Assembly: GCA_003640385.1 (NCBI GenBank)
Contig: RCAB01000671.1
Coordinates: 1-27,915, forward strand
Source of the DNA: Setaria digitata
Taxonomy: Eukaryota > Nematoda > Chromadorea > Rhabditida > Setariidae
DNA length: 27,915 nt
Direction of reading: 5' to 3'
Positions 313 to 27,894 of this stretch are shown in pieces. The notes under the pieces were generated by a model, which saw only the letters and a list, made by a program, of their open reading frames with translations, ran no database searches and was not told the origin of the DNA. Positions within the stretch are counted from its first letter, which is position 1; every line of letters begins with the position of its first letter. The position numbers and the translations under genes are program-made.

Positions 313-390
313 ACGGTGGCAGCGTACTTCTTTGCATCGCCATACGGAATGTTGAAGACTATGGAATGTAAAGAAGTATGTAGCCCCAGA
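313..390 (+). ncRNA. mir-1: mir-1 microRNA precursor
   Basis: The mature miR-1 sequence is at 362-383, beginning TGGAATGTAAAGAAGTATG, which matches the highly conserved animal miR-1. Bases 318-344 pair with 360-385, leaving a loop at about 345-359. The stem has the TACTTCTTT/AAAGAAGTA core and only a few mismatches or G-U pairs, with the mature strand on the 3' arm as in other animals. miR-1 is a muscle-enriched microRNA; this role is family knowledge and not visible here. No host gene is evident. The hairpin lies just downstream of the tandem array and converges on the 3' end of the minus-strand carboxypeptidase gene. Confidence 0.95.
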
Positions 391-1847: not shown

Positions 1848-2374
1848 TTAAGAGCAATATTCACAAGTATGCTCACAATTCACTTTCATAAATTGATACT
1901 GTACAGTGCAAAGATCTGGATTACCTCGTAACCAAAATTTGCATGAATTTCGCTTATCATTACATTTCGGATCCGGAAAATGTGCACCGGAATTACCCAA
2001 ATGATCATTTCGTATTGTTGACGAAGATAAAGTTATAGCTGTTGAGGGTTGTCGTTTCGTATAGTTTGATAATGTTTGAATTGGTTTTAAATCATATCTT
2101 GAATTGATAATTTTGAACGGTTGTACGATATTTGTTATCAATAAACCGTTACCATTGCTGGTAGGTTTTCTGATAGTATCAATTTTCGATGTCGAATTTG
2201 TTGGAACCGTTTTAATGGTACCGTTACGAAAATAAACTGTAGAACCAATTGCTCGGGATTGGATCTCCTTATCAATCTCATCACTGATTGCATGATTTGG
2301 GACAGTTTTGATATTAGCTAATATCCGTGATATGCTACCAGTGTTTGGCTGAATTTTGGCTTCCTTGTTACTTG
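1848..2374 (-). other. Carboxypeptidase last exon: linker and ShK domain
   Basis: The acceptor TTTTATTCTAG precedes 2374. About 135 residues of Ser/Thr/Asn-rich, low-complexity sequence with several N-x-S/T sequons are followed by a ShK (SXC) module. Its cysteines are in the segments PKC, NSC, DLC, VNC, HTC and EYC, and the protein ends one residue after the sixth. ShK modules are common small disulfide-rich extensions of secreted nematode enzymes. This one is not an independent gene, because phase and position tie it to the M14 exons. Confidence 0.88.
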
Positions 2375-5300
2375 CTAGAATAAAAATTCCCAGAAACAAA
2401 AAATTCAATTAAGTTTTTCATGCATTTAAATGGTAATAGAAGAAAAGTTTTTAAATGATATTTTTATATAAATAAAAAGAGAGATTTTTGGCATTTCAAA
2501 AAAGAAACGGAAAAAGTATGTCAAAAAGTAAAGCTGAAAATTAATTGAAAAAAAAAAGAAAAACTAACGAATTTGATGATTTATAAATTGACCTAATACA
2601 GAAAGCGGTTCAGTATTCGTCGTTTTGACGTTTCTTATAACCAGTAATTCATTAGCACGAATAGTATCATCGATAACTGTTCGAACACCTTCCCAAGTTT
2701 CTACAGCTGTTGGAATTAGTTCATTTTTGTTTAGAATAAAACCATTTAATACTGAAAAAAAAAATTTTAAATGAAAAAAAAAAAGAAATTTTTTCATTTA
2801 ATGAAAAAGAAAGCAAATTTTCAAAAATGATATAATATGAAATAATATCAAAAATCATACAGATTTATTCTAGCCATTTTCATTTTATTTCATTTCTCTG
2901 TTTGTATCAATTATAGCTCCATTTTTTAAAATCTATTTTTAAATTAGAACTTTGAATAAATATTCAAATATAAAATACATAATTAAACATTCAAACATAA
3001 AATGTAAACAATGAAAACAATTAAATCACGTACACTCTAACTGAGGTCGAAGTTCAAGTAAGTAAACGAATTTCACACCAAGTACGTCTTTAGCCCAGTC
3101 ATCCGAACCACCAGATGCTGGTGCTGAAAATTTCCATTAAATTTTAATGCTGCTTAATTAAAAACCATTTGTAAAAAGATTTCATATTTTTTTTTTTTTA
3201 AATTAAAACAACAGATAACAGATAATGAAGAAACCTAAAATATCAGCTCCAGTACCAATTTGATATGTTGTTCCATAAACCTTCTTCAGTCGACTCACCG
3301 CTCGTTTTGCTGTACGTTTCTGTATGATTTTCATAAGACAAGTTTAAATAAAAAAAAATGAAAAATAAAAAAAAAAAAACAAAGTAAAATTACTTTATGA
3401 TATTTAATAATAAATATAAAAATTGAATATAATTTTCATAAGACAATTTCATAAGGAAAAATTTTCAAAACAGAAAAAAAGAAAAAACGAAATAAAAGTC
3501 TTTGACAATATTGTTAGCAAACATGAAAATCGAAATCGATAGATAAGAAAGGTAAAAGTGAAAGAATAGAAATAATTTGAAATTAAAAGAAATATTCATA
3601 AATTTCAAAAAATTCATTGCTTTTTACTAATGATTGCAAAGCATTTTATTTGCCAGACATATAAGCTGTACGTTATTTACGGAATAAATGTTCTAGCAAA
3701 GGAATAATATTAACAATTGTAATTAGTAAATCACCAGTTGCGCATAATTGTCTGGAAATGATTCCACTTTGTGGCTATATGGATGTATCCATAATTGAGC
3801 ATATGTGTGAAGCGTTATAAAACCGTCTAATTTACCTTGCATCTCAGGTGAAAGCAAAAAATCTCTTACCGCTCTGAAATTGTATACTCAAAAAACTTTT
3901 AAATGAAGAATTCATTATGCACTTAATTTGAGAAAACAAAAAACGAAATTTTCCATACATTTACATTCTTTTTTTTTCTTGAAATAATTTTTAATATTAT
4001 CAATAAAAATTTATTTGTTCGAATTAAAAAAAAAAAAAAAACATTTGCATGCAATAACAATAATTGATTTGTTTCAATTAATATAAAATGAAATTTAATA
4101 GCGGACAATAAAAAAAAAAAAAAAAGATTGAAGAAGAGATGAAAGAGAAGGAATTTAATTAACCATTTTCTGTTTTTGGAATATCTTTTTGATTGTCATA
4201 AAACAAAAAAGATTTTTACCTGAGTTACTAGTATTTGCCTAAACAATTTGGGTAAATTTTTTTTTTCTAACTTTTAATTTTCCAATCAAAATGTCGCTAT
4301 TATTAACGAAAACTAATTAATATTTTAGCTGTCTTGCCAAAATCTCCTTTTCTGATGTACAGCTCATATTTCTACCTAAGCCAATTTCATTTTTTATATG
4401 GACAATTTTTAGAATAGCATAATTATTGACTTTTTATATTCATTTTGAGTAAATATTTCTTCAATTTTTTTTTCTTTTTTAATTTGAAAAGCAGTTTTTG
4501 AAAATACCTCGTTTCCGGCTCACTAAATGCGCTTTCACCCTGATACAAATATGAACAAGGATTTTCACTTGAGCCCACTTCTGAAATTTACAAAATATAG
4601 AAATTTGTTAATTTAATCGCATTTTTGTGCTACTCTTATCAGAGTAAGTAGAGAAAATGATATGAAAAGATGAATTTTTTCCAATTCTATTTTGAATTCA
4701 GTTGCTTCTATTTTTTTTTTCTTTTTTTTTCAATCTTTGTTTATCTGTTTGTTTGCTTGCTTGTTTATTTAACGAACTGCAAACAGATCAACATGATTTA
4801 AATACGGCTTTCATCGATCACTCAAATTTATGATTTCTTCACAGATGAATTTCTTTATTGCATCATTTTTCCATCATTTCTCAGTAAAATTACAAAGAAA
4901 AAAAAAAAAAAAAAGAAACTAACAATAAAAAAAAAGAAAAAAATTCGAACCAGCCCAGTGAAAATCGAAATTTCGATTTAAATCAACTCCCTGACAACAT
5001 CGGCGACCACCCCATTGGGAACGAACGCACTTTTGTGGTGAACGATTTTTACGCCATAATCGAACCTGAAATGAGAAATTGATCACATAATTAGCTTTTA
5101 ATTGAGTATTATAAGCGCAATGGCATATGCTCTCCTGTTGTATGAGTATTTCTGCAATTATTATAAGTGCGACGACCATAACAAAAAGAATTATGTGCTT
5201 GGATAGCTTCCAATGCGTATCACTGATGATGCAAAAGTTATTTTTAGCTACTTATTGTACGCAGACTGCTATAGCAATAATTATCATTATGATTAAGTTG

Positions 5301-8300
5301 GTTCAAATTACATAATAGTGATAAAACAAGTGTATTTTTTCTCTTCTTTATTGTATGGATATCACTGTAACAATAAAAGTTACGTTAATACAATTGCTTA
5401 TAAATGATGATATATATATATATATAATACCGCTGAGTGCTTATTTTCATCATACTAATACTCAAACAATAATATAATGTTTCTTCGTAGTAATGAAATT
5501 TAGCAATTATATCGTGGAAATTAATAAATACGTGAATGAACATATGATAGAAATGCTTGGCACTTTATGCTTAACTAATTAATTAATGAGCGACAATTAA
5601 TAAAAGAACCTGAGGATTTGGTTTTGACCGTGTATATTCATAGCCATCTGGATTTAAGCATGGAAAAATATAAATATTAATTGATTTAATATATCGTGTT
5701 ATAATTGGATCCTTTCCGAATCCTGAGACCAACTAAAAAGTAATCTGTGCAATCTTTTATAAATTTTTCAAATAAATCGAAAAATTACATTTCGCTTTAA
5801 TTTTCAATTTCTTCCCTTGGAATTCACAAATTTGATGTATTCTTTTATTAGCCATAAGACAGGCACAATTCAAAAGAATTATGGAAATAAAATTAAAAAA
5901 AAAAGAGAGAACTGAGCATATTATATTCACTGTTCGTTTCTTTTTTTTTTCTTTGAAAATTTTTTTTTTTTTTCAAGTTTTCACTTTTTTCTTGTGAATA
6001 TTCGATTACCCTAAATATAACTGACAAAGGAATTCGTTTTCCAAAATTTACGAGAAAGCAGAAGTTGATGCAATCTTTCATACTTTGTGATTTTTGTTTG
6101 TCTAATCTCCTGGGTGATAAACTGATAAGTACCTGATTTATGAAATAAAGTGCTGTATGACTTGAAGCCCATTCTCGTGCGTGAATATTTCCGTCAATCC
6201 AAAATGCGCGTTTATTTGTATCACGTATTGGATAACCAATCTTAAACAGTATTAAATATTTCTAATCAGTCATATGCATTGCTAATTTAACACTATATTA
6301 TATTAATTAATTATCCAAAAAATTATATTGCTGACTTTTTAAAAGAGAATAGCAAGCAAGAAAAAATACTGAGGTAGTAAAAAAATACGTTAATCACTTG
6401 TCTGCATTTTTCTTTTAAATTATAATAGTTTAAAATTTTTCAATGATTTTAAACTGATAAATTTTTACTATAATAATATTTCATTACTAAGTGAAAAGAA
6501 TTATATATTTTTTTTTTTTAAAAAAAAAGGTAGAGTTATTGTTTTATAAAATCTCAGGTAAATTTACATATTATTATTTGATTTTCGAAAAAAAAAAAAA
6601 GAAATTGACAGTAATAAAAAGTAAAAGTTAACCTTTAACCCTTCAATTGGTGCACCCTCGTGTGAAACACCAATTCGTACAAGCTTTGTTATATGAGGAT
6701 AATAAAATTCAATTGTGCGCATATATTTTAGCATTTCTTTATATGAACCATAATCACCAAAACGATATTTCACTTTTAAATTGCTTACTTTTCTTAATGA
6801 TTCTTCTGAAACTGTTTAAAAAGAAAAAAAAAAAGTGAATTGAAAATGAAAAGAACAGAAAAATTAAATAAATAGATGTAGAGAAAGATGAACGGCAAAA
6901 CGGACGAAAGCACATTTTTATTCATTTAAAAATTAAATTTTATTATAAAAATTTCATTTCTTAGATTAATTTGAAAATAAATGAATGCTTTCTTTCTTTT
7001 TTTTTTTTTAAAAATACACTTTTATTACACATTTCAAAATTAAATCTTTTGATTTGATTTTTTAATAACGACTAATTTGCTAACTTAAAGGATTGCATTT
7101 TTTTGCTCAGTTAAAAATTAGATTTTACTCCAATTAATTGATTTTTCTGGTTTAAGCTAATTTGATTTTGATTAATTCATCAATCTCTCATTACTGTTTT
7201 CATTGCAGCAGAATAGTTTTTTTTTTTTTTTTGCTTCACAATTTTGAAAAAGAAATTTTTGCCGTGTTACGATGAAATAATATTCAAAATTTAAAACGAT
7301 TCTTCTGCCTATCAATGATTGGTGGCAAAAAAATTTCTGCAGTAATAAACTAATTAAACAAAAAAGGAAAATTAACATTCAGGGAGAGAAAAAAGTTTGC
7401 TTAATTTTCAGAAATAAACTTGGAAACTAAAAGTCACCTAATACTATTTATATGAGCATAAAAATGAATGTAAATTATCATTTAACAATTAAAAATATCA
7501 GTGCAGCACTCCATAACTTAATCTCAAAACCATTCAAATTTACAACTGAACAATTTTTTTTTTTTTTTTAACAAAAATGTAATGTCCATGTATATATACA
7601 TAAATCAATCAAGATTTCAAATGATTTTGTCTGTTGAAATATATAATATATATATATACATATATTTTTATACATAAATAATTGTTGTTAATGAAAAATT
7701 CTTAATAAAATCATTTATTAAAGACTCACGTGAATCATCTGCTTCTTCATCCAAAATTGGGTCATCTTTTAAATGAGCAAAAAATGATTCTAACAATGTA
7801 TCACGCTCTTTCATCGTCCTTCCAGCATTGTTTGCATTTCTCGGATAGATTTCATTCCGCTCGATCAAACTAAAAATCATTTCAAATCTTCTCATCTTTA
7901 ATATTTTTTGCAATTTAAAAATTTTTCTCATATATAGGAATTAAACTTTTGTATAAATTTATTTAACTTTTTTTTTTTTTTTTTTGGATATTTCAAAAAG
8001 TTGATATAGATTTGTTAGTTCGCAATGGGCAGTCCTGTTAATGGATATAATTTGATGTTCAATATCTCAATCGATCACTAAACTTGTCCCGTTAATTACA
8101 AAAATATTTCGTCTCAACTACCTGACTCATCATTTGGAAAATAAATCAAACTGAACAATAGTGTTTAGTACTTTTGTAACATATCAGATGAGTCTTCACA
8201 CTCAAATAATAGAATCTCGTCTTGAAAGTTTAGCTAAGAACTTTGTGCTAAAATTTCAACTTTTTTTTTTTTTGAATATATAAAGCATGATATTTGCTGA

Positions 8301-19226: not shown

Positions 19227-22200
19227 ATGTTTACCCAAAGGGAAGAACACTGGAAGGAAGGAGATGATTTGTTCAGTAGCGAATATCGACGTCGCATAAC
19301 GCATGAAGATATCTGTAATTGTGATAACGATCAATTTGCGATATCATATCATAGAGCAGCTCAAGCATCATCGCAAGACTGGCGAAAATCTACCGATTAC
19401 TGCAGTGGATTCAGTGACTATGCGCCATTGTATCCAGCAGATCTCTGGTTTCAGAATGATCTAAAGAGAATCAGAAGACAAAGCTTACAACGATGCTGCA
19501 ACTGTTGCAGTAATTGTTGTCGTAAACAGCAACGTAACTACTGCAAAGAATATCAGTGTGATGACGTAAATGACTATAGTCATGATTACGATACCGCGTT
19601 TGATTCAACGTATCTTAGCGATCATATTACGAAAAGTTCGGAAAATCTTAAAACAATACGCGTAATACCGGTGGCATTCGTTTCCTCATTAGCTTCCAAG
19701 AATATGGTTGATGCAACCAGGCAGTCGGGTAAAATTGCTCTCGATACCGATTCCGGTTATCTGAATGCTATTGATGCTTCTAATTATGGGCCATTTATGG
19801 CTCGTAAGATAAGAATTACACCAGCAATAATGGAACTTTTAACAAGAAGATATCAGACGACCCAGGAGCATCGTTCAACATCGGAAAGGAAATATTTACG
19901 TGAGATTCAGAATAATGAATATGATGTTACCAAACGTGTAGCATTCGTAAATGAGACACATGATGAATCAGATGATTCAAGAATTAAATTTGATGATTAT
20001 CATGATATTACGTCAAAACTTAAAAACAGCGAATTCGAAGCAACTTCATTATCTGCGCCAAGAAGTTCGAAAATTCCCATTCTTAAAAATTCTAATCTGT
20101 TATTTACAAAGACAATCGATGAATGTAAGTTGCCGAAAAAATACTTCCGGAAAAATTCATTTACTGAAGAGTGTAATCATGAAAGTGGACGTGATACATT
20201 AATGGAAGGATTAGCATTATTAAAGGATCGAAAAAAAGAACAGGAAACGAAAAAAACATTTCAGACAACACCAAGTGATAATTATTTTGGTGTGGAATCA
20301 ATCCACTCAGAAACAATTCCTAAAATTCGGGAATACAGCAACAACAATAACAAGCAACAACAACAAAAGCAACAACAACAACAACAACAACAGCAGCAAT
20401 CCGCAATTAAAAGAATTGCAACTTATTGGCATAAAAAAACATTTAAAAAGTTTCAACAAACGGAACGTTGTTCACCAAAACCCGAATCAAAATATAATAA
20501 TTTGATAAATAAACAAGTGGATGATGATGATTTGGTGAGAAGAAAATTGATAGCAGGAAGCAATGCTAATAATTCATCAGATAACAAAAATAATATTAAT
20601 AGTAATGAATCAAAATTCATTATGGAAATCCGTCATGCACGGGAAAATTTACGAAAGATTTCCAAACATTCAGCACTGATCGATAATTGTGAGGATGCAA
20701 CAAAGTTTGGAATTATTTCAAATAAAAAAGGTTGATTTTTCAATTTTTATATCCTTTTTTTTTTTCTAATTTTTATTTTTATTTTCAGTTATCCACTTAT
20801 TTTTTTTTAGCATTCATATCTATTTATCGAAATATATTATATTCTGATTATGCGTGAAATGTAACGATTAGTTTAAAAACAAAAAACAACAAAAAAACGG
20901 CATTTTTTTAATTAACTTTTCTTATTCAGTTTCTTGCATGAAACCTCAATATTAGAATCGAAAAATCAAAACAAATAATTTTCTTTCTTTCTTTCTTTCT
21001 TTTTTTTTTTTCAAGTAGCTCTTCATTAAATTATATTGCACACTTTTTTCTTTTTCGAATTAATTAACTTGAAATTATGCAGTATACTTTTTTCTCTAAA
21101 TTATTCATCTAATGGTGCAAAATCTCAATTTTTAATTGCAACTTTTTTGAAACTTTTCGTGCCTTTTAAGCTTTTTAATTAATAAAAGTTGTTGCATGTT
21201 CAATTTCTTTCTTCACATTTGATTATTTTATTTTTTTTTTTTTGCCTAAATAAGGTTTGTGGATTTTTTTTAAACAGAATTACCATNTGTTCAATTTCTT
21301 TCTTCACATTTGATTATTTTATTTTTTTTTTGCCTAAATAAGGTTTGTGGATTTTTTTTAAACAGAATTACCATTGCTGCACTCGATATTCATGTGCAAA
21401 TATGATATAGATATTCTATTGCTAAGTGAAAATATCAAATTATAATTCAAGTTTGTAAGTTTTAAATAATTTTTACAAATTGCACAGAAAATTTGCAGAG
21501 CTCCAAATGCACCCATTAGCGCCATCTTCTAAGAAAGAAATTTCAACTTCTCATGCATCACAGGCGTTTGCTAAAAATCGCAATCGAAATGACGACTATG
21601 CTGAAGACATTCCATCATTCCGGAACTTTCACCAGGCCAGAAAAACGCAAAATTTAGAATGCATTCAAGAAATAACCGAAACTAAACCTGTCGAAGAATT
21701 ATCACCGTACAAGAGCCGAAAGCGTGAAACAATTACCGCCGAAGTATACATTCGCAATCCAAGCAATCTGAAGCCAACGATAATTAACGTTTCAACAACC
21801 GAAAAAGAATCCAAAAGGCCATACTGGATGATTGTGAAGGCATATGAGTCATCATCCGGCGCAGATGCCCGAACTGTTTCAAGAAAAAATCCCAATGAAA
21901 GAAAGATACAAATTCGATCTGGATCCAGTTTGGATGCAGAAACTGAAAAATTATCTTCCAGAAATTTAGCTAAAAGCAATCTCTTGTTCAAAATCACTGC
22001 ACCAAAAACGAAGGACGATATATCTGAGAAAGATGGAATCCCTTCAGATTCTAAATTGCGATCAACAGTGCATCTGAAAACAAAAACTGAAACAAAAACT
22101 TCAATTAAATCACGAATTATTAGTGAGAGTAAGTGCTTTGTTAGAAAACAATCGTTTATAATTTATCAGTTGTGGTTGAATCATGAATTACCATAATTTC

Positions 22201-25200
22201 AATTAGCTACTTCATGATTAGCATAAAATTTTTTAGAAAGAATTTCTCTGAAAAATAGAAAAAATATTTTCTACGAAGTAAAAGTTTTAAAATTGCAATA
22301 ATTTGAATTTTAAATTGTGAATGTAGGAATGGAATTTCTTTTTTTTTTTTTTCCTCTTTCTCTTTCTCTGCCTCTTTGATGAGATCGAAATTCTCCACTG
22401 TAAAAAATTAATGCATTATGATAAAAGAAAAAAATTAGTGGAAATTCTTGAATTTCATCAGCAAATTCCTTTCCAAAAGGAATTTCTTCCTTTCTTGTTA
22501 TTGCGTGAAATTTTAGCTTCAATAAAAATTTCCTTTTATTGACTAATAACAAATGAATTTGCAGAAAATTTTACAAAATGTTGATAATTTAGCAGATAAT
22601 TTCCGACCACTGATAACAATGAAATCGGATGAAATTTGTGAAATTCATCATACTGATAACTTCGAACGATTTCATACAAATAATGGTGATTTGGTGGAAA
22701 TTTGTCGTCGTGGCTCACCAATATTTTTCATTTTCCAATATAATAACAATCTTGAAATTCTTGATAACCTATCAATTATTTTCAAAAATGGTATCTTTTA
22801 AATATTGCTTCACTTTAACAGAGAATGTGATAATTATGTTGCACATTTTCAAGCTGTTTGAAGAATTATTCCAGTATAATTGATTCAGTTTGAACTTCAA
22901 ATAATAAGAAATAAAAATAAAAAATATTGCTCAATATACCAAACTCTATTCACCTTTCCGCTTTTTAAATTCAATATACCAAACTCTATTCACCTTTCCG
23001 CTTTTTAAATTCAATATACCAAACTCTATTCACCTTTCCGCTTTTTAAATATTTATGTGTATATTTATTTTCATCACTCATTTGTTGAATTTCAGAGCTG
23101 ACGAATCATGAATTTAGAATTTCGGCCGTAAAGTATAACTATTCAACTCCGACATCAGCAACCGAATGGCACGCAACATACAAGATTCAATCATTGGGTA
23201 CAGCAATATTTGAAGTGAATTTTTGCACTCTAAATTAAATTTTTCCATACAATAGTTAAGGATATAAACTATCGACTAGTTTTATTATTCGATTTTTTTT
23301 GATTATTATTTTGTTTGATGAGTTGTTCTTTTCCTTTTCTCGTTTTAAAACTTAAATCAAATAAATGATTGATGGAAATTATCACTCAGATATTAACACC
23401 AGCTGATAGTCCAATTGGTCTTTGGCAGATGACTGTGCAATGTGATGAACAGTACAACTTAAGCACTGTTTATTTATGCATTTTGTTCAATCCATGGAAT
23501 AAAGGTTTTAGTTTTGCTGTGAATGTGGAGTAATTAAATTGGTAATCTAATAATCAACTAATTATTTCTTTAGTTTCAATATATTGTGCATTACTTAATT
23601 AATAGTATGACGAATCTAATCTGCTAAATTACAGATGACGAAACATATTATGCAAATCAGTTGGAACTCAAAGAATATATTTTAAATGAATTAGCAATAA
23701 TTCATAAATGGCATCAGAACGATGCGTGGATTCTCGGACAATTTAGTGCTGTTTGCATGAAGACAGTGTTAGAACTGCTGAAAATGTGTGAGAAAAATAA
23801 TTTCCTACGAGTAAATGAATTTGGATCAGCTTGTGCAGTGGTTAAAGGAATTGCTAGAGCTGTAAGTTAAGACTAAAATAGATATCAGTAATTAAGGAAG
23901 ATTTTTTCCTCTGCAAACGGAAGTCGAAATTTTGAAAGTTATTTTAAACCTCAATTTTTTGCATTTGTTTTTTCATCATATTTCCATAAAAAATTAGTTT
24001 TCTCGCCATTCTTTTTCTTTTTAGATTAGTAAATTTATGATGGAAATTAAGTGGAATGATTTTCGTGGAAGTAATTATGAAAATGAAATTTTGCCAAGTA
24101 GCTGGACTGGTAGCAAAGAAATTATGATAACTTATCAAAAAGTGGGTGGTCGAATTGGCTATGGGCAGTCGTGGTGCTATGCTGGTCTCCTGACGTCCAG
24201 TACAATTTCAATTTTATTTTCATTTTAGCATTGAAATTTCGAACTTATAGCAAATTGAAATACTATATAATTTATTTGGATTTTTATTGAATTAATTATC
24301 TTAAATTTGTTCTTATTTCTTTTTGAGAATAAAAAACTAGACTTCTTTAGTGTATAAAAAGAAAAAAAAATTGCAGTCTGTCGATGTATTGGCATACCAT
24401 GTCGTATGACAACTATTTATAATTTTCCTCCACAAATTAAGGATAATACAGTAATAACGTTGGATCTTATAGATGATATGCTTGCTGAACGAAGCAAGGA
24501 TACCGTGTGTTTTTCAAATTAATCATTATATGGTAGTGATTGTATACTGTATCATTGTGATAATGATATAAATTAATATAATAATTTTATACAGGAAAAA
24601 AATTGCATAATATGACATAACATTTTTACATAACACTTTGATATTTCATTTCATGATAATATTTCCTATTTTACCTTTCATCTGATGATTTTGTAATAGA
24701 ACTTATCAATAAAAGAGTAAGCATAGATTAGACGAAAATTTTAAGTGAAATTAATACAAAGAGTAAATTCATGAATAAAAGGAAAGTTAATTCCTTTTAA
24801 ATTTTGAAGGCAAGAATCAAATTCTTTTGAATTATATATTTCATATAGATACGAAGTTCGTTTTCTTGTTAAAGATGTATGCTTTGTGAGTTCTCAATCG
24901 TTTTATACTTAATCTGGTTTTCAATTGTAAGAAAAAATTTGTAAAGGTTTAAATTTTCGGACAAATTATTTTTCAATTATTAACTTCTTTAATCGTATTT
25001 TCTTGTGAGAAAAAGTTCAATTTATTGAAAAATATAGATATGGCATTATCATATTTGGAATGAATTATGGCTTCAATCAAAGTTTTTGAAAAATGGTGGC
25101 GATTGGCATGTCTGTGATGCGACACCAATTTCAAATGGTTTCCTTAGCGATGTTTCATCTTATTTCAGTGATAATATAAACTGATAATAGCGCTACTTTT

Positions 25201-27894
25201 AGACTTTTCAGTAATTAGCTCTCTCTAGCTTTAAAAAGCATTTATTTTTACACGTTCCAGAAGATGGATATCAAATTTCTGAGAAGGGACTCTTTCCGGT
25301 AAAGCGAATTAAAGATATGAATAATGATAATGACAATGATGGTGATGTTGATAAAACAAGAGAGCCAAATGAAGACGAATATTTTGGGAAAAAATTGCAT
25401 GGAAAACTAAATGCTAATATTATTTGTAATTATTACTACCGTGATCCAGTTACACGTGAACCAATTTTTGCGTATTCAAAAAAGCTTGAAAAAAAGTAAG
25501 TTTTAAGTTTATACCGGTTAAAAAAAATTTTAATCCAAGAAATTTTTATATTTTTATATGAATTTAAATTTATCCCACTTATCTCATATACTTTTAGCTA
25601 ATCAGTCTAAGAAATAATTTGAGGAATAATCAATTTGTAAGTAGTTTAAAACAAAAAATTTACATTGCTTTTGTATAGCTTCTGAAATTACCTGAAAATT
25701 TTTAAAATATTACGATTAAATGATTTTTATGCAGTGTAATAATATGAAAATAAAGTTATGCGCGTGTAATTACAATTAATAAAATGATATAATTATTTCA
25801 ATTTTGTTTGAGAGTAATCGTCTAATACAAAATACATTTTTAAGTAAAAAATAAATAGAATAAAAATGTAGCTAACAAGAAAAGAAATCATAAGTTTAAA
25901 ATTTTTGAAGTAAAATAAAGAGGAAAAAGAAAAAGACTCATAATCAGATTAGTTGCTTTCTATGAGTTTTCACTCTTTCTTGCTTATTTTATCTCTGCTT
26001 TTCTAATTATATATTACCATTTACTTGCTTGTGTTTTAAAGTTTTAAAGCAAAAAGTTTGCATACTGAAAATGCTTTACAAATTTTTGGTTTTTTAGAAT
26101 GTCTAATAATCTCATCACAACTATTTTGGACAAAGATATTAATGTTACAATGAATTATAAACAACAAGCAAGTTTGAATTCGCAAGTATTGGATGGCAAT
26201 TTTAAAAATGCATGCCTTACATTGATACATCAACATGGAGAAGTTGGTGATTTCGAAACAAACCTAAGCAGTTTTAAAAATGTTAGTTTATATTGGCAAT
26301 TTTGTATTAAAATTTAGACAGCTCCCACAGTACTGATTTACGAGGCAGAAAATTTTGAAATTTTAGTTTTCTCCTGAGATAGCTTATAGAAATTAACAGT
26401 ACTGTATGATTTCTTTTCTTGCTTGAAGATTACTGATACGATGAGATCGAAATTCCTTGAGACTATTTAAAAGATCCGACAATGATTGTTGCAAAATGCC
26501 TTAAATAATATCATTTAGTTCAGAAATTCTTCCACCTTCTAAATGGTTATCAGTGTTATTAGTACAGATATGTTAATGCATTGTAAACAAAATTGATGAT
26601 TTTATAATTTTTCTGGAAAAGATGCATATAGAATTTTTGACCAAAAATTCACTTAAAATTATCCAAATTTTAATTATTTATCTTATCATTATGCTATTTT
26701 TATAGGTTGCCTTATCTAACCATTTATCAAAAAACGTTCTACAGATTGATATCGATAAGCCAATAAATGGATATTTGATTATTAGCAATAAATCATTATT
26801 TGAACGAACTGTTAATGCGCAAATCCAAATTGATTTAACAAGTTATACAGGACTGGTTATCACACATATTTATCTTTACGAGAAAATGCTTATCATCAAA
26901 TCAAAGCAAAGTATGCAGCAAAAATTAGCAAAAATTTGTTAATTACTTCATCCAAGCATTTCCGCACAAATAATGAAATAAATGAAAAAAAGTATTGAGA
27001 ATAATTACTTGAGATCTCTTATCAGTTACACTTATCGTTTAAACAATTTATTTGAGGTGAAAAAATGGAATTTACTGTCCCGGCTGATTATATCCGGAAT
27101 ATGTTTACGGAAGATTGGAATATTTCAATAACAGCCTTTACACGAATTTTACATACTGATGAGCGATTTTATGCTCAGCAAATAATAGCACTTGTGAAAC
27201 CGGTTTTGTCAATTAGAAAGGTTTCTTTTTTTTTCGTCTCCCAGTAAAATTTCAAAAAATGATTACTTTTCTTGCAGTGTCTGCCCTATTTTAAGAATTT
27301 TAAATTTAAGAATTTCTTAATTTTTGCTAATTTCACTGCCACTAATTTTAAGGAATTAATTTAAGAATTTAAATTGCTATAGAAATAAAGAAAAAAAAGG
27401 AAAAAACTTGTTAAATTCTTTTTTCCCAACCTTTAATATCCTCATCAGACTCCAGCACAATTGCTCTCATCTCTGATTTCGATTAACTGTTCAAATTCGG
27501 TTTCGAGATGAATTTTAGTTTATTACAGAAAAACTCGTTGATTTCGTCTGCTAAAGAAGTGGAAGAACAATTTCAAATTTCAATGATCAATTCAACAAAT
27601 ATATTGCTGACAGGTTGTGAAATCAGAATTGATGGAGCAGGACTTTTATTTTGCGATTCACCGATCTTATGCGGGTTTATTGAATTTCAATTTTAATTCG
27701 AAGTTTGCCAAAATTTGTATAATTTTCAATTAAAATATTTGAAAAAGGTAGAAATGTATTGATATTATTAAAATAATTAATATATTTAATCAACTATTAG
27801 CTTTATATTTGACTATTTTCTTTCAAGGGTGTACAGCCCTTTACAAACTCATAATACAGTGTATTCTCGTCGTAGCAAGCTAATTAATCGCTGA
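19227..27894 (+). CDS. Transglutaminase-like protein with long disordered N-terminal region; catalytic Cys replaced by Ser
   Basis: Fifteen-exon model: 19227-20730, 21499-22128, 22593-22790, 23096-23214, 23390-23504, 23635-23861, 24025-24199, 24377-24504, 25038-25137, 25261-25495, 26098-26281, 26706-26910, 27057-27220, 27529-27674, 27828-27894. The total is 4197 nt (1398 aa), in phase throughout. Residues 1-711 are low-complexity with a Cys cluster and polyQ. From about 712 the order is TGase N-terminal sandwich (HHTDNFE, CRRGSPIFF, TPADSPIGLWQ, LFNPW), catalytic core (LELKEYILNE, GQF, SSWTGS, YGQSWCYAG, CRCIGIP, YHIWNELW, CDATP) and C-terminal barrels (NGYLIISNKS, EFTVPADY, IRIDGAGL). Active TGases have Cys in G-Q-C-W; here codon 24169-24171 is TCG (Ser980), while His1037 and Asp1059 remain. 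Cross-linking activity is therefore doubtful, and a structural or scaffold role is more likely. An alternative model starts at ATG 22553 and gives a 700-aa TGase-like protein, with 19227-22196 as a separate upstream gene. The 3' end is uncertain. Confidence 0.8.
19491..19526 (+). other. Cys-rich cluster resembling the TGM1 membrane-anchor motif
   Basis: Residues 89-100 read RCCNCCSNCCRK, with Cys at 90, 91, 93, 94, 97 and 98 flanked by Arg/Lys. Vertebrate keratinocyte transglutaminase (TGM1) has an N-terminal CCGCCSC cluster that is S-acylated and anchors it to membranes, and insect annulin is likewise fatty-acylated. The resemblance suggests palmitoylation and supports linking these exons to the downstream TGase-like domains. 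It lies further from the N terminus than in TGM1. A metal-binding or disulfide role is the alternative. Confidence 0.5.
20355..20399 (+). repeat. In-frame CAA/CAG polyglutamine tract
   Basis: Fifteen codons (residues 377-391) encode Gln4-Lys-Gln10, mainly by CAA with two CAG. The tract follows an Asn run and precedes a basic segment (SAIKRIATYWHKKTFKK). Such a repeat is likely to vary in length between isolates. Confidence 0.9.
21197..21374. repeat. Near-identical direct duplication flanking an N
   Basis: About 90 bases starting TGTTCAATTTCTTTC at 21197 are repeated from 21288. The two copies differ essentially only in the length of a T homopolymer and are separated by a single N at 21287. 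The pattern is that of two overlapping contig ends joined without being collapsed. It sits inside the first intron of the plus-strand gene and does not affect codons, though the intron length is unreliable. Confidence 0.9.
22553..23214 (+). other. TGase N-terminal sandwich, exons 3-4
   Basis: These exons carry EIHHTDNFERF, the EICRRGSPIFF strand (compare LIVRRGQPF in TGases) and EWHATYKIQSLGTAIFE (compare the GGWKAQVV region). The exon 4 donor GAA/GTGAAT at 23215 is preferred over GTACAG at 23198, because it keeps the phase and the alignment into TPADSPIG. ATG 22553 is the alternative start of a self-standing TGase-like protein; an ATTTTAG 3' splice site about 37 bases upstream could take a spliced leader. 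Confidence 0.85.
22931..23050. repeat. Three perfect 40-bp tandem copies in an intron
   Basis: Identical 40-bp units beginning TCAATATACCAAACTCTATT start at 22931, 22971 and 23011. They lie within the intron between TGase exons 3 and 4, ending 45 bases before the exon 4 acceptor. Their complete identity indicates recent expansion or an assembly effect. Confidence 0.95.
24025..24199 (+). other. Active-site exon with Ser in place of catalytic Cys
   Basis: The exon reads ISKFMMEIKWNDF, then ILPSSWTGSKEIMITYQ and GYGQSWCYAGLLTS. Its Trp in SSWTGS matches the conserved W-x-G-S of TGases, and YGQSW matches YGQCW. The Ser codon is TCG at 24169-24171. The nearest Cys (TGC, 24175-24177) is two residues later, where active enzymes usually have Val. 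The downstream join yields TS-I-CRCIGIPCR, aligning without gaps to the family's TTTVLRCLG, so the Ser is not produced by a misplaced splice or frame. Confidence 0.92.
24505..25037 (+). other. TGase-like intron 8
   Basis: A 533-base AT-rich intron between exons 8 and 9, with donor ACC/GTGTGT and acceptor AATATAG. I see no nested gene. The other introns longer than 300 bases in this gene (20731-21498, 22129-22592, 22791-23095, 25496-26097, 26282-26705, 27221-27528) also hold nothing beyond the repeats listed. Confidence 0.7.
25038..25137 (+). other. TGase triad His and Asp exon
   Basis: IWHYHIWNELW supplies the triad His (CAT at 25050-25052), and DWHVCDATP supplies the Asp (GAT at 25116-25118). 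Both sit where active TGases have them (WNFHVWN and GWQ-x-x-D-x-TPQ). The Gln after DATP is Ile here. Confidence 0.9.
27529..27894 (+). other. Putative 3' end of the TGase-like gene
   Basis: Exon 14 (27529-27674) encodes EEQFQISMINSTNILLTG and CEIRIDGAGL, matching the start of the last TGase barrel. A GG/GTTTAT donor at 27675 and a TTCTTTCAAG acceptor at 27827 join in phase to a short exon ending RRSKLINR and TGA (27892-27894). The result lacks roughly 40 residues of the usual barrel. Without that splice the frame stops at 27694-27696. Either the protein is truncated or further exons lie beyond the window. Confidence 0.45.

What the first reader, a model, noticed from the sequence alone, without database searches (positions are those of the whole stretch)
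24025..25495. Transglutaminase pseudoenzyme: catalytic Cys is Ser and calcium ligands appear lost
The TGase core is well preserved (W-x-G-S, Y-G-Q-x-W, R-C-x-G, H-x-W-N, D-A-T-P), but the nucleophile is Ser (TCG at 24169). The segment aligning to the calcium-site N-S-D reads N-A-N. Joint loss of the nucleophile and the calcium sites in an otherwise intact open frame suggests selection for a non-enzymatic role, as in band 4.2 (Cys to Ala).
Basis: partly seen in the sequence, partly recalled or inferred. Interest (0 to 1): 0.88.

Follow-up and report, generated by a model that had tools for sequence, protein, structure and literature searches.

The report
Nematode transglutaminase with serine for cysteine
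A gene in a parasitic nematode encodes a relative of tissue transglutaminase in which a serine stands where the catalytic cysteine should be, and the same swap is present in all six nematode species in which the gene was found, so the protein has likely given up cross-linking and would instead work by binding other proteins.

Summary
The window is one contig, best matched by Setaria digitata (99%). A 14-exon model (19227-27696, +) gives one 1382-residue frame: a 711-residue N-terminal extension, then Transglut_N, Transglut_core and a weak Transglut_C. Codon TCG at 24169-24171 is Ser979, at the position of TG2 Cys277. TCG is two changes from either Cys codon, and 6 of 6 spiruromorph nematodes (five filariae and Gongylonema) have Ser there, so it is old and not a read error.

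The band 4.2 parallel is only partly right. Band 4.2 has lost Cys, His and Asp. Here the triad His and Asp, both tunnel tryptophans and Thr360 survive in every nematode sequence that covers them, and the stretch around Ser is the best conserved of eight compared. Lost are the amine-side pair (TG2 His305/Glu363), the calcium site 1 loop and the site 2 glutamates; site 3 is partly kept in orthologues. A Cys-rich N-terminal cluster resembles the TG1 palmitoylation anchor.

Best reading: a conserved, likely membrane-anchored pseudo-transglutaminase that keeps the glutamine-side pocket as a binding site. A working Ser-His-Asp hydrolase is not excluded. No expression, activity or structure data were available.

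The parts
19227..20730 (+). exon 1: N-terminal extension, residues 1-501 (Gln-rich run, Cys-rich cluster)
   Evidence: open frame from ATG; colinear with P0002, P0003, P0010, which start MFTQ/MLTQ and run on into the transglutaminase part; absent from public model P0001
19494..19520 (+). Cys cluster C90-C98 (CCNCCSNCC), possible S-acylation anchor like that of TG1
   Evidence: 8 Cys in 25 residues (87-111), 0 of 5000 shuffles reach it; clusters at about the same place in 3 of 3 other N-terminal extensions; acylation inferred
21499..22128 (+). exon 2: rest of N-terminal extension, residues 502-711
   Evidence: matches P0001 from MHPLAPSS on
22596..22790 (+). exon 3: start of Transglut_N domain (acceptor may lie 3 bases upstream, as in P0001)
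23096..23214 (+). exon 4: Transglut_N
23390..23504 (+). exon 5: end of Transglut_N, ILFNPW motif
23635..23861 (+). exon 6: start of catalytic core
24025..24199 (+). exon 7: core with Trp940 (TG2 Trp241), Ser979 (TG2 Cys277), Cys981
   Evidence: my 3' end gives GLLTSI where P0001 has one Val; 4 of 4 orthologues that read across it have six residues here (GLLTSI twice, GLLMSI, GLLTSL)
24169..24171 (+). TCG codon of Ser979 at the nucleophile position
   Evidence: Ser in 6 of 6 nematode sequences, Cys in 5 of 5 other invertebrate TGases
24377..24504 (+). exon 8: core; loop that lacks TG2 His305
25038..25137 (+). exon 9: Trp1033, triad His1036 and Asp1058, Thr1060; TG2 Glu363 position is Ser1063
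25261..25495 (+). exon 10: Asn-Ala-Asn (1115-1117) at calcium site 2, plus an acidic insert
26098..26281 (+). exon 11: link to first C-terminal barrel; site 2 Glu stretch missing
26706..26910 (+). exon 12: first C-terminal barrel, Tyr1251 of YTG
   Evidence: (Transglut_C below cut-off)
27057..27220 (+). exon 13: first C-terminal barrel, second half
27529..27696 (+). exon 14: part of second C-terminal barrel and stop; end may be incomplete
   Evidence: same end in P0001; contig stops at 27915

Best explanation
This gene encodes a TG2-family protein whose nucleophile position holds serine in all six nematode species in which it was found, so it is predicted to be a pseudo-transglutaminase that likely cannot cross-link proteins and would act as a scaffold anchored at a membrane. 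Shown by sequence: the fold domains, the Ser, the kept His, Asp, Trp, Trp and Thr of the glutamine (acyl-donor) side, the loss of the amine-side pair and of most calcium ligands in S. digitata, and a Cys cluster in a long N-terminal extension. Inferred: the Cys cluster is S-acylated and holds the protein at a membrane, as in TG1; the kept half-site still binds a glutamine-containing segment of a partner but goes no further, because the thiol, the amine-handling pair and most of the calcium switch are gone; the protein therefore works by binding. The partner is unknown.
For: Ser in 6 of 6 nematode sequences and Cys in 5 of 5 other invertebrate TGases. Residues 971-996 around Ser are 24 of 26 identical to each of three orthologues (P0002, P0003, P0010), against 26-45% in the extension, 54-69% in Transglut_N and the core before it, and 72-84% in the His-Asp stretch. 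431 core codons are open; random substitution to 34% amino-acid divergence gave a mean of 13 stops, and 0 of 300 runs had none. No His stands in the loop of TG2 His305 in 5 of 5 sequences that cover it, and Glu363 is Ser, Thr, Val or Ala in 4 of 4; that pair serves transamidation and not hydrolysis (PMC13073648, section 7). Mouse TG2 C277S, the same swap made in the laboratory, lacks transamidation but keeps GTP, fibronectin and integrin binding (PMC8322091, passages). TG1 is held in membranes by Cys47/48/50/51/53 (PMC11476513, passages); this protein has CC-N-CC-SN-CC.
Against: No transcript, protein, activity or structure was seen. The kept His, Asp, Trp and Thr are more than a mere scaffold needs and would also suit a working Ser nucleophile. 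Calcium site 3 keeps three acidic positions in 3 of 5 sequences that cover it. Public models of A. viteae and L. sigmodontis miss pieces (part of exon 3; in L. sigmodontis also exon 5), which could be poor prediction or real decay. In the orthologues Transglut_N is under its cut-off in P0002 (25.4 bits) and P0004 (18.0) and not listed for P0003 and P0010. The membrane anchor rests on a Cys cluster alone; the extension is weakly conserved (26-45%). O. flexuosa and Gongylonema models stop before His and Asp.
Confidence: 0.6

Rival explanations
1. A serine hydrolase in a transglutaminase fold: Ser979-His1036-Asp1058 works as a triad that cleaves esters or amides, or deamidates glutamine, without transamidation.
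For: His, Asp, Trp332 and Thr360 are kept in 4 of 4 sequences that cover them and Trp241 in 6 of 6, while the pair needed for amine transfer only is lost (PMC13073648 section 7). The Ser stretch is the most conserved of the eight compared.
Against: Mouse TG2 C277S has transamidation no different from a knockout (passages; hydrolysis not seen there); a thiol-evolved triad rarely works with Ser (established knowledge). Gongylonema has His for the Gln next to Ser. Calcium switch mostly lost in S. digitata.
Confidence: 0.12
2. A Cyk3-like regulator: the Cys-less domain uses its His and Asp surface to bind and switch on another enzyme, for instance a matrix or chitin synthase.
For: Fungal Cyk3 keeps His and Asp and lacks Cys; changing His and Asp to Ala is lethal in a strain that depends on Cyk3, and the paper reports that its transglutaminase-like domain helps activate chitin synthase Chs2 (PMC4758748, abstract and passages). 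Same triad pattern here.
Against: Cyk3 is not of the TG2 family and has an SH3 domain; no SH3 was found here. The Cyk3 change did not abolish Chs2 binding. No partner known.
Confidence: 0.15
3. A decaying former transglutaminase under weak constraint.
For: Fast-evolving extension (26-45% identity), core only 27-36% identical to canonical invertebrate TGases, gaps in two public models.
Against: Open frame across 14 exons here, six species with nearly the same Ser stretch, 24 of 26 identity around it in three, no stops where random substitution predicts about 13.
Confidence: 0.07
4. An active transglutaminase in which Ser979 or the invariant Cys981 two residues on serves as nucleophile.
For: Cys981 is invariant in 6 of 6 nematodes, where 5 of 5 canonical enzymes have Val.
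Against: Two residues along a helix does not point at the same His (established geometry; not modelled here, structure prediction was off). His305/Glu363 and calcium sites 1 and 2 lost.
Confidence: 0.04

Closest known systems
Band 4.2 (protein 4.2, EPB42)
   Same: TG2-family fold without catalytic Cys; scaffolding role in the red-cell membrane skeleton (PMC13073648, passages)
   Different: band 4.2 has Ala/Gln/His for Cys/His/Asp and lacks Trp241 (PMC13073648); here only Cys of the triad is changed, to Ser, and it is a nematode gene with a 711-residue extension
Fungal Cyk3 transglutaminase-like domain
   Same: His and Asp kept, catalytic Cys absent; His/Asp needed for a role other than cross-linking (PMC4758748, passages)
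   Different: different branch of the transglutaminase-like superfamily (recalled), SH3 domain
TG1 (keratinocyte transglutaminase)
   Same: N-terminal extension with five Cys (47, 48, 50, 51, 53) used as membrane anchor (PMC11476513, passages); this protein has CCxCCxxCC
   Different: TG1 is an active Cys enzyme; its anchoring domain is residues 1-92
Laboratory TG2 C277S
   Same: identical swap at the identical position; transamidation lost, binding kept (PMC8322091, passages)
   Different: made by mutation in a mouse; its other TG2 residues are unchanged
Filarial ERp60/PDI-like 'transglutaminase' of Dirofilaria immitis
   Same: filarial protein credited with transglutaminase activity
   Different: described as without homology to mammalian transglutaminases (PMC7914743, passage; PDI nature PMC4974336, passage)

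Membership tests
Animal TG2-type transglutaminase family (by descent) | Transglut_N domain over curated cut-off | tested here: met
   window model 39.0 bits, cut-off 27; but orthologues P0002 25.4 and P0004 18.0 are under it, P0003 and P0010 not listed
Animal TG2-type transglutaminase family (by descent) | Transglut_core over curated cut-off | tested here: met
   window 36.2 bits, cut-off 23; also P0002, P0003, P0010
Animal TG2-type transglutaminase family (by descent) | two Transglut_C barrels | tested here: inconclusive
   15.0 bits, cut-off 26.6; the TG3 alignment extends weakly (9.0 bits) through both barrels; barrel 2 looks short
Active transglutaminase | Cys nucleophile | tested here: not met
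   Ser in 6 of 6 nematode sequences
Active transglutaminase | triad His and Asp | tested here: met
   His1036 and Asp1058, 4 of 4 nematode sequences that cover them; 2 of 6 models stop before
Active transglutaminase | tunnel Trp241, Trp332, Thr360 | tested here: met
   Trp940 in 6 of 6; Trp1033 and Thr1060 in 4 of 4 (O. flexuosa and Gongylonema set aside for the last two, their models end earlier)
Active transglutaminase | amine-side pair His305/Glu363 | tested here: not met
   no His in the loop in 5 of 5; Ser/Thr/Val/Ala at Glu363 in 4 of 4
Active transglutaminase | calcium sites 1 and 2 | tested here: not met
   site 1 loop 4-5 residues shorter in 6 of 6; acidic stretch aligned to the site 2 Glu pair missing in 2 of 2; ligand list recalled from TG3 and factor XIII structures
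Active transglutaminase | calcium site 3 | tested here: inconclusive
   acidic positions kept: 1 of 3 in S. digitata, 2 in C. johnstoni, 3 in A. viteae, L. sigmodontis and Gongylonema, under one alignment; another alignment places the loop differently
Active transglutaminase | amine incorporation activity | not testable with these tools
   needs recombinant protein
Band 4.2-like pseudoenzyme | whole triad lost | tested here: not met
   His and Asp kept; band 4.2 has Ala/Gln/His
Cyk3-like regulator | His and Asp kept, Cys absent | tested here: met
   Cyk3 pattern from PMC4758748 (passages)
Cyk3-like regulator | SH3 plus Cyk3 architecture | tested here: not met
   no SH3 in the Pfam scan at E up to 1
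TG1-type membrane-anchored member | acylated N-terminal Cys cluster | tested here: inconclusive
   cluster present in 4 of 4 extensions examined; acylation not testable here

The most novel reading that the evidence does not exclude
Spiruromorph nematodes have turned a thiol transglutaminase into a Ser-His-Asp hydrolase: they replaced the nucleophile, dropped the amine-accepting half-site and most of the calcium switch, and kept the glutamine-side tunnel, a natural Cys-to-Ser change of chemistry within the papain-like transglutaminase fold.
Probability: 0.12. Interest if true: 0.88.

Novelty: new variant of a known kind. Interest (0 to 1): 0.64.

Why it matters
Filarial cross-linking activity has been ascribed to PDI-like proteins said to have no homology to mammalian transglutaminases (PMC7914743 and PMC4974336, passages). 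Here is a TG2-family gene in filariae, and it carries by nature the swap that a laboratory mouse model uses to remove TG2 transamidation (PMC8322091). Searches of its own genome with two canonical enzymes found no second TG2-type gene (sensitivity limited). It gives a natural system in which the glutamine-side pocket, the amine side and the calcium switch have come apart, which makes the question of what transglutaminases do without catalysis directly testable.

Tried and rejected
Sequencing error at the codon: rejected, TCG is two changes from either Cys codon and five other species agree. Pseudogene: disfavoured. Frameshift in exon 12: considered, then resolved by a phase-consistent splice to exon 13. 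A second, Cys-bearing TG2-type gene in the genome: searches with two canonical invertebrate TGases gave two matches each, both in this window's exons; the search works exon by exon and found only 2 of this gene's own exons, so a divergent gene could be missed. The family search with Transglut_core is weaker still: it did not report this gene itself; its one hit (C334) has a thioredoxin domain just upstream and reads as peptide N-glycanase, a name that is my recall of the architecture. The family search with Transglut_N found nothing, nor in its controls, so it says nothing. Brugia, Loa, Dirofilaria and Onchocerca volvulus did not appear in three protein searches; those need shared words and limited length, so absence is not claimed. 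A paper implies that C. elegans has a TGase gene (PMC2573874, passage); not tested. Paper searches found no report of this protein, judged from listings only: 20 of 25 listed; 1 of 1; 10 of 16; 3 of 3, one being the Cyk3 paper; 0. Structure prediction failed once and was then switched off, so there is no model and no fold search.

Full report
What it is. The window is contig C636, 27,915 bases, of a 75.6 Mb assembly. Its best protein match is a Setaria digitata record, 'Transglutaminase-like domain-containing protein', 874 aa, 99% identical over the queried part; S. digitata is a filarioid nematode. I built a 14-exon gene on the plus strand, 19227-27696; all 13 introns are GT-AG, phases agree and there is one stop, at the end: 1382 residues. 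From residue 505 on, the model differs from the public S. digitata model P0001 in two places only: N against TD at the exon 2/3 join (acceptor 3 bases away), and GLLTSI against V at the end of exon 7. Four of four orthologues that read across exon 7 have six residues there, as in my model. Exon 1 is not in P0001, but three other species' models begin with the same MFTQ/MLTQ start and run on into the transglutaminase part. Between exons 1 and 2 lies an assembly join (one N at 21287, an 88-bp near-duplicate).

The observation. Transglut_N and Transglut_core pass Pfam's cut-offs; Transglut_C does not. In the orthologues the core passes in P0002, P0003 and P0010, while Transglut_N is under its cut-off in P0002 and P0004 and not listed for P0003 and P0010. 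The 18 distinct PDB sequences matched are transglutaminases (TG2, TG3, factor XIII-A, one other) and band 4.2. The nucleophile is Ser979, codon TCG at 24169-24171, two changes from TGT and TGC.

Orthologues. Three protein searches gave, besides S. digitata, Cercopithifilaria johnstoni (P0002), Acanthocheilonema viteae (P0003), Onchocerca flexuosa (P0004, ends after the Ser stretch), Litomosoides sigmodontis (P0010) and Gongylonema pulchrum (P0011, 268 aa, ends before the triad His). Gongylonema lies in Spiruroidea, outside Filarioidea. At the nucleophile 6 of 6 have Ser; five other invertebrate TGases (P0005-P0009) have Cys. So the swap predates the split of these groups, if it happened once. 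I saw no Cys-bearing nematode relative, but the searches are word-limited.

Constraint. I compared eight stretches of residues 1-1142, with borders that I chose. Residues 971-996 are 24 of 26 identical between the window and each of P0002, P0003 and P0010; the His-Asp stretch is 72-84%, Transglut_N 54-62%, the core before the site 58-69%, the site 3 loop 50-68%, the part after the core 48-58%, the extension 26-45%. In 300 runs of random substitution of 431 core codons to 34% amino-acid divergence, stops averaged 13 and no run had none; the observed frame has none. Gene predictors avoid stops, so the test is strict only for the window itself. Two public models lack pieces (A. viteae part of exon 3; L. 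sigmodontis part of exon 3 and exon 5), which may be prediction or decay.

Which half of the active site is left. Of the TG2 residues named in a 2026 review (PMC13073648, section 7 read), Trp241 is kept in 6 of 6, and Trp332, His335, Asp358 and Thr360 in 4 of 4 sequences that cover them; Asn333 is His in 3 and Asn in 1. His305 has no counterpart: no His occurs in that loop in 5 of 5 sequences, although two alignments place the loop differently. Glu363 is Ser, Thr, Val, Ala. The review says the His305/Glu363 pair resolves the thioester into an isopeptide and is not needed for hydrolysis. Calcium: the site 1 loop is 4 to 5 residues shorter in 6 of 6; at site 2 the Asn is kept, the next-but-one Asp is Asn or Thr in 4 of 4, and the acidic stretch that aligns to the two Glu is missing in 2 of 2; at site 3 S. 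digitata keeps 1 of 3 acidic positions, C. johnstoni 2, and A. viteae, L. sigmodontis and Gongylonema 3, under one alignment. The ligand lists are recalled from the TG3 and factor XIII structures. Of 126 columns invariant among the five canonical TGases, the window keeps 65.

Against band 4.2 and towards Cyk3. Human band 4.2 reads Ala, Gln, His at the triad. The nematode protein reads Ser, His, Asp. Fungal Cyk3 also keeps His and Asp without Cys; changing both to Ala is lethal in a strain that depends on Cyk3, though it does not abolish binding to chitin synthase Chs2, which Cyk3 helps to activate (PMC4758748, abstract and passages). Mouse TG2 C277S lacks transamidation and keeps GTP, fibronectin and integrin binding (PMC8322091, passages).

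The extension. Residues 87-111 hold 8 of the extension's 16 Cys (0 of 5000 shuffles reach 8); the best 25-residue windows in P0002, P0003 and P0010 lie at about the same place with 6, 6 and 5 (6, 2 and 50 of 5000 shuffles). TG1 is inserted in membranes through Cys47, 48, 50, 51 and 53 (PMC11476513, passages). The spacing is much alike; acylation here is inference.

Own genome. Two canonical TGases used as queries gave two matches each, all in this gene's exons. Transglut_core as a family did not report this gene and hit only a gene at C334 with thioredoxin and transglutaminase-core exons, which I read as peptide N-glycanase.

Mechanism and likelihood (my estimates). No cross-linking: about 0.9. 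Conserved binding function that uses the kept half-site: about 0.6. Membrane anchoring by the Cys cluster: about 0.5. Ser-based hydrolase: about 0.12. Expression was not seen at all; the C. johnstoni annotation used no RNA-seq (PMC8564745, passages).

Literature. Filarial transglutaminase activity is ascribed to a PDI/ERp60-like protein (PMC4974336 and PMC7914743, passages; the 1998 original was not held). I found no paper on this protein in the searches, judged from their listings, which were cut short.

Noticed in passing
313-390 (+): mir-1 microRNA precursor, full-length Rfam match, 66.5 bits, about 19 kb upstream of the transglutaminase gene on the same strand.
   Followed up: no
1848-6815 (-): Exons of an M14 zinc carboxypeptidase gene; a nearby open frame carries a ShK-like domain just under its cut-off.
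   Followed up: partly
21197-21376: 88-bp near-duplicate around a single N at 21287 in intron 1, probably an assembly join.
   Followed up: partly
22931-23050: Three exact tandem copies of a 40-bp unit in intron 3.
   Followed up: no
24175-24177: Cys981, two residues after Ser979, is invariant in 6 of 6 nematodes where the five canonical enzymes have Val.
   Followed up: partly
25320-25352: Asp/Asn-rich insert (residues 1085-1095) after the triad Asp; the orthologues are shorter here.
   Followed up: no
P0004 (Onchocerca flexuosa): UniRef names this orthologue fragment 'SUN domain-containing protein'; Pfam shows no SUN domain, only a sub-cut-off Transglut_N.
   Followed up: partly
1-252: 38/85-bp tandem repeat at the contig start.
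   Followed up: no
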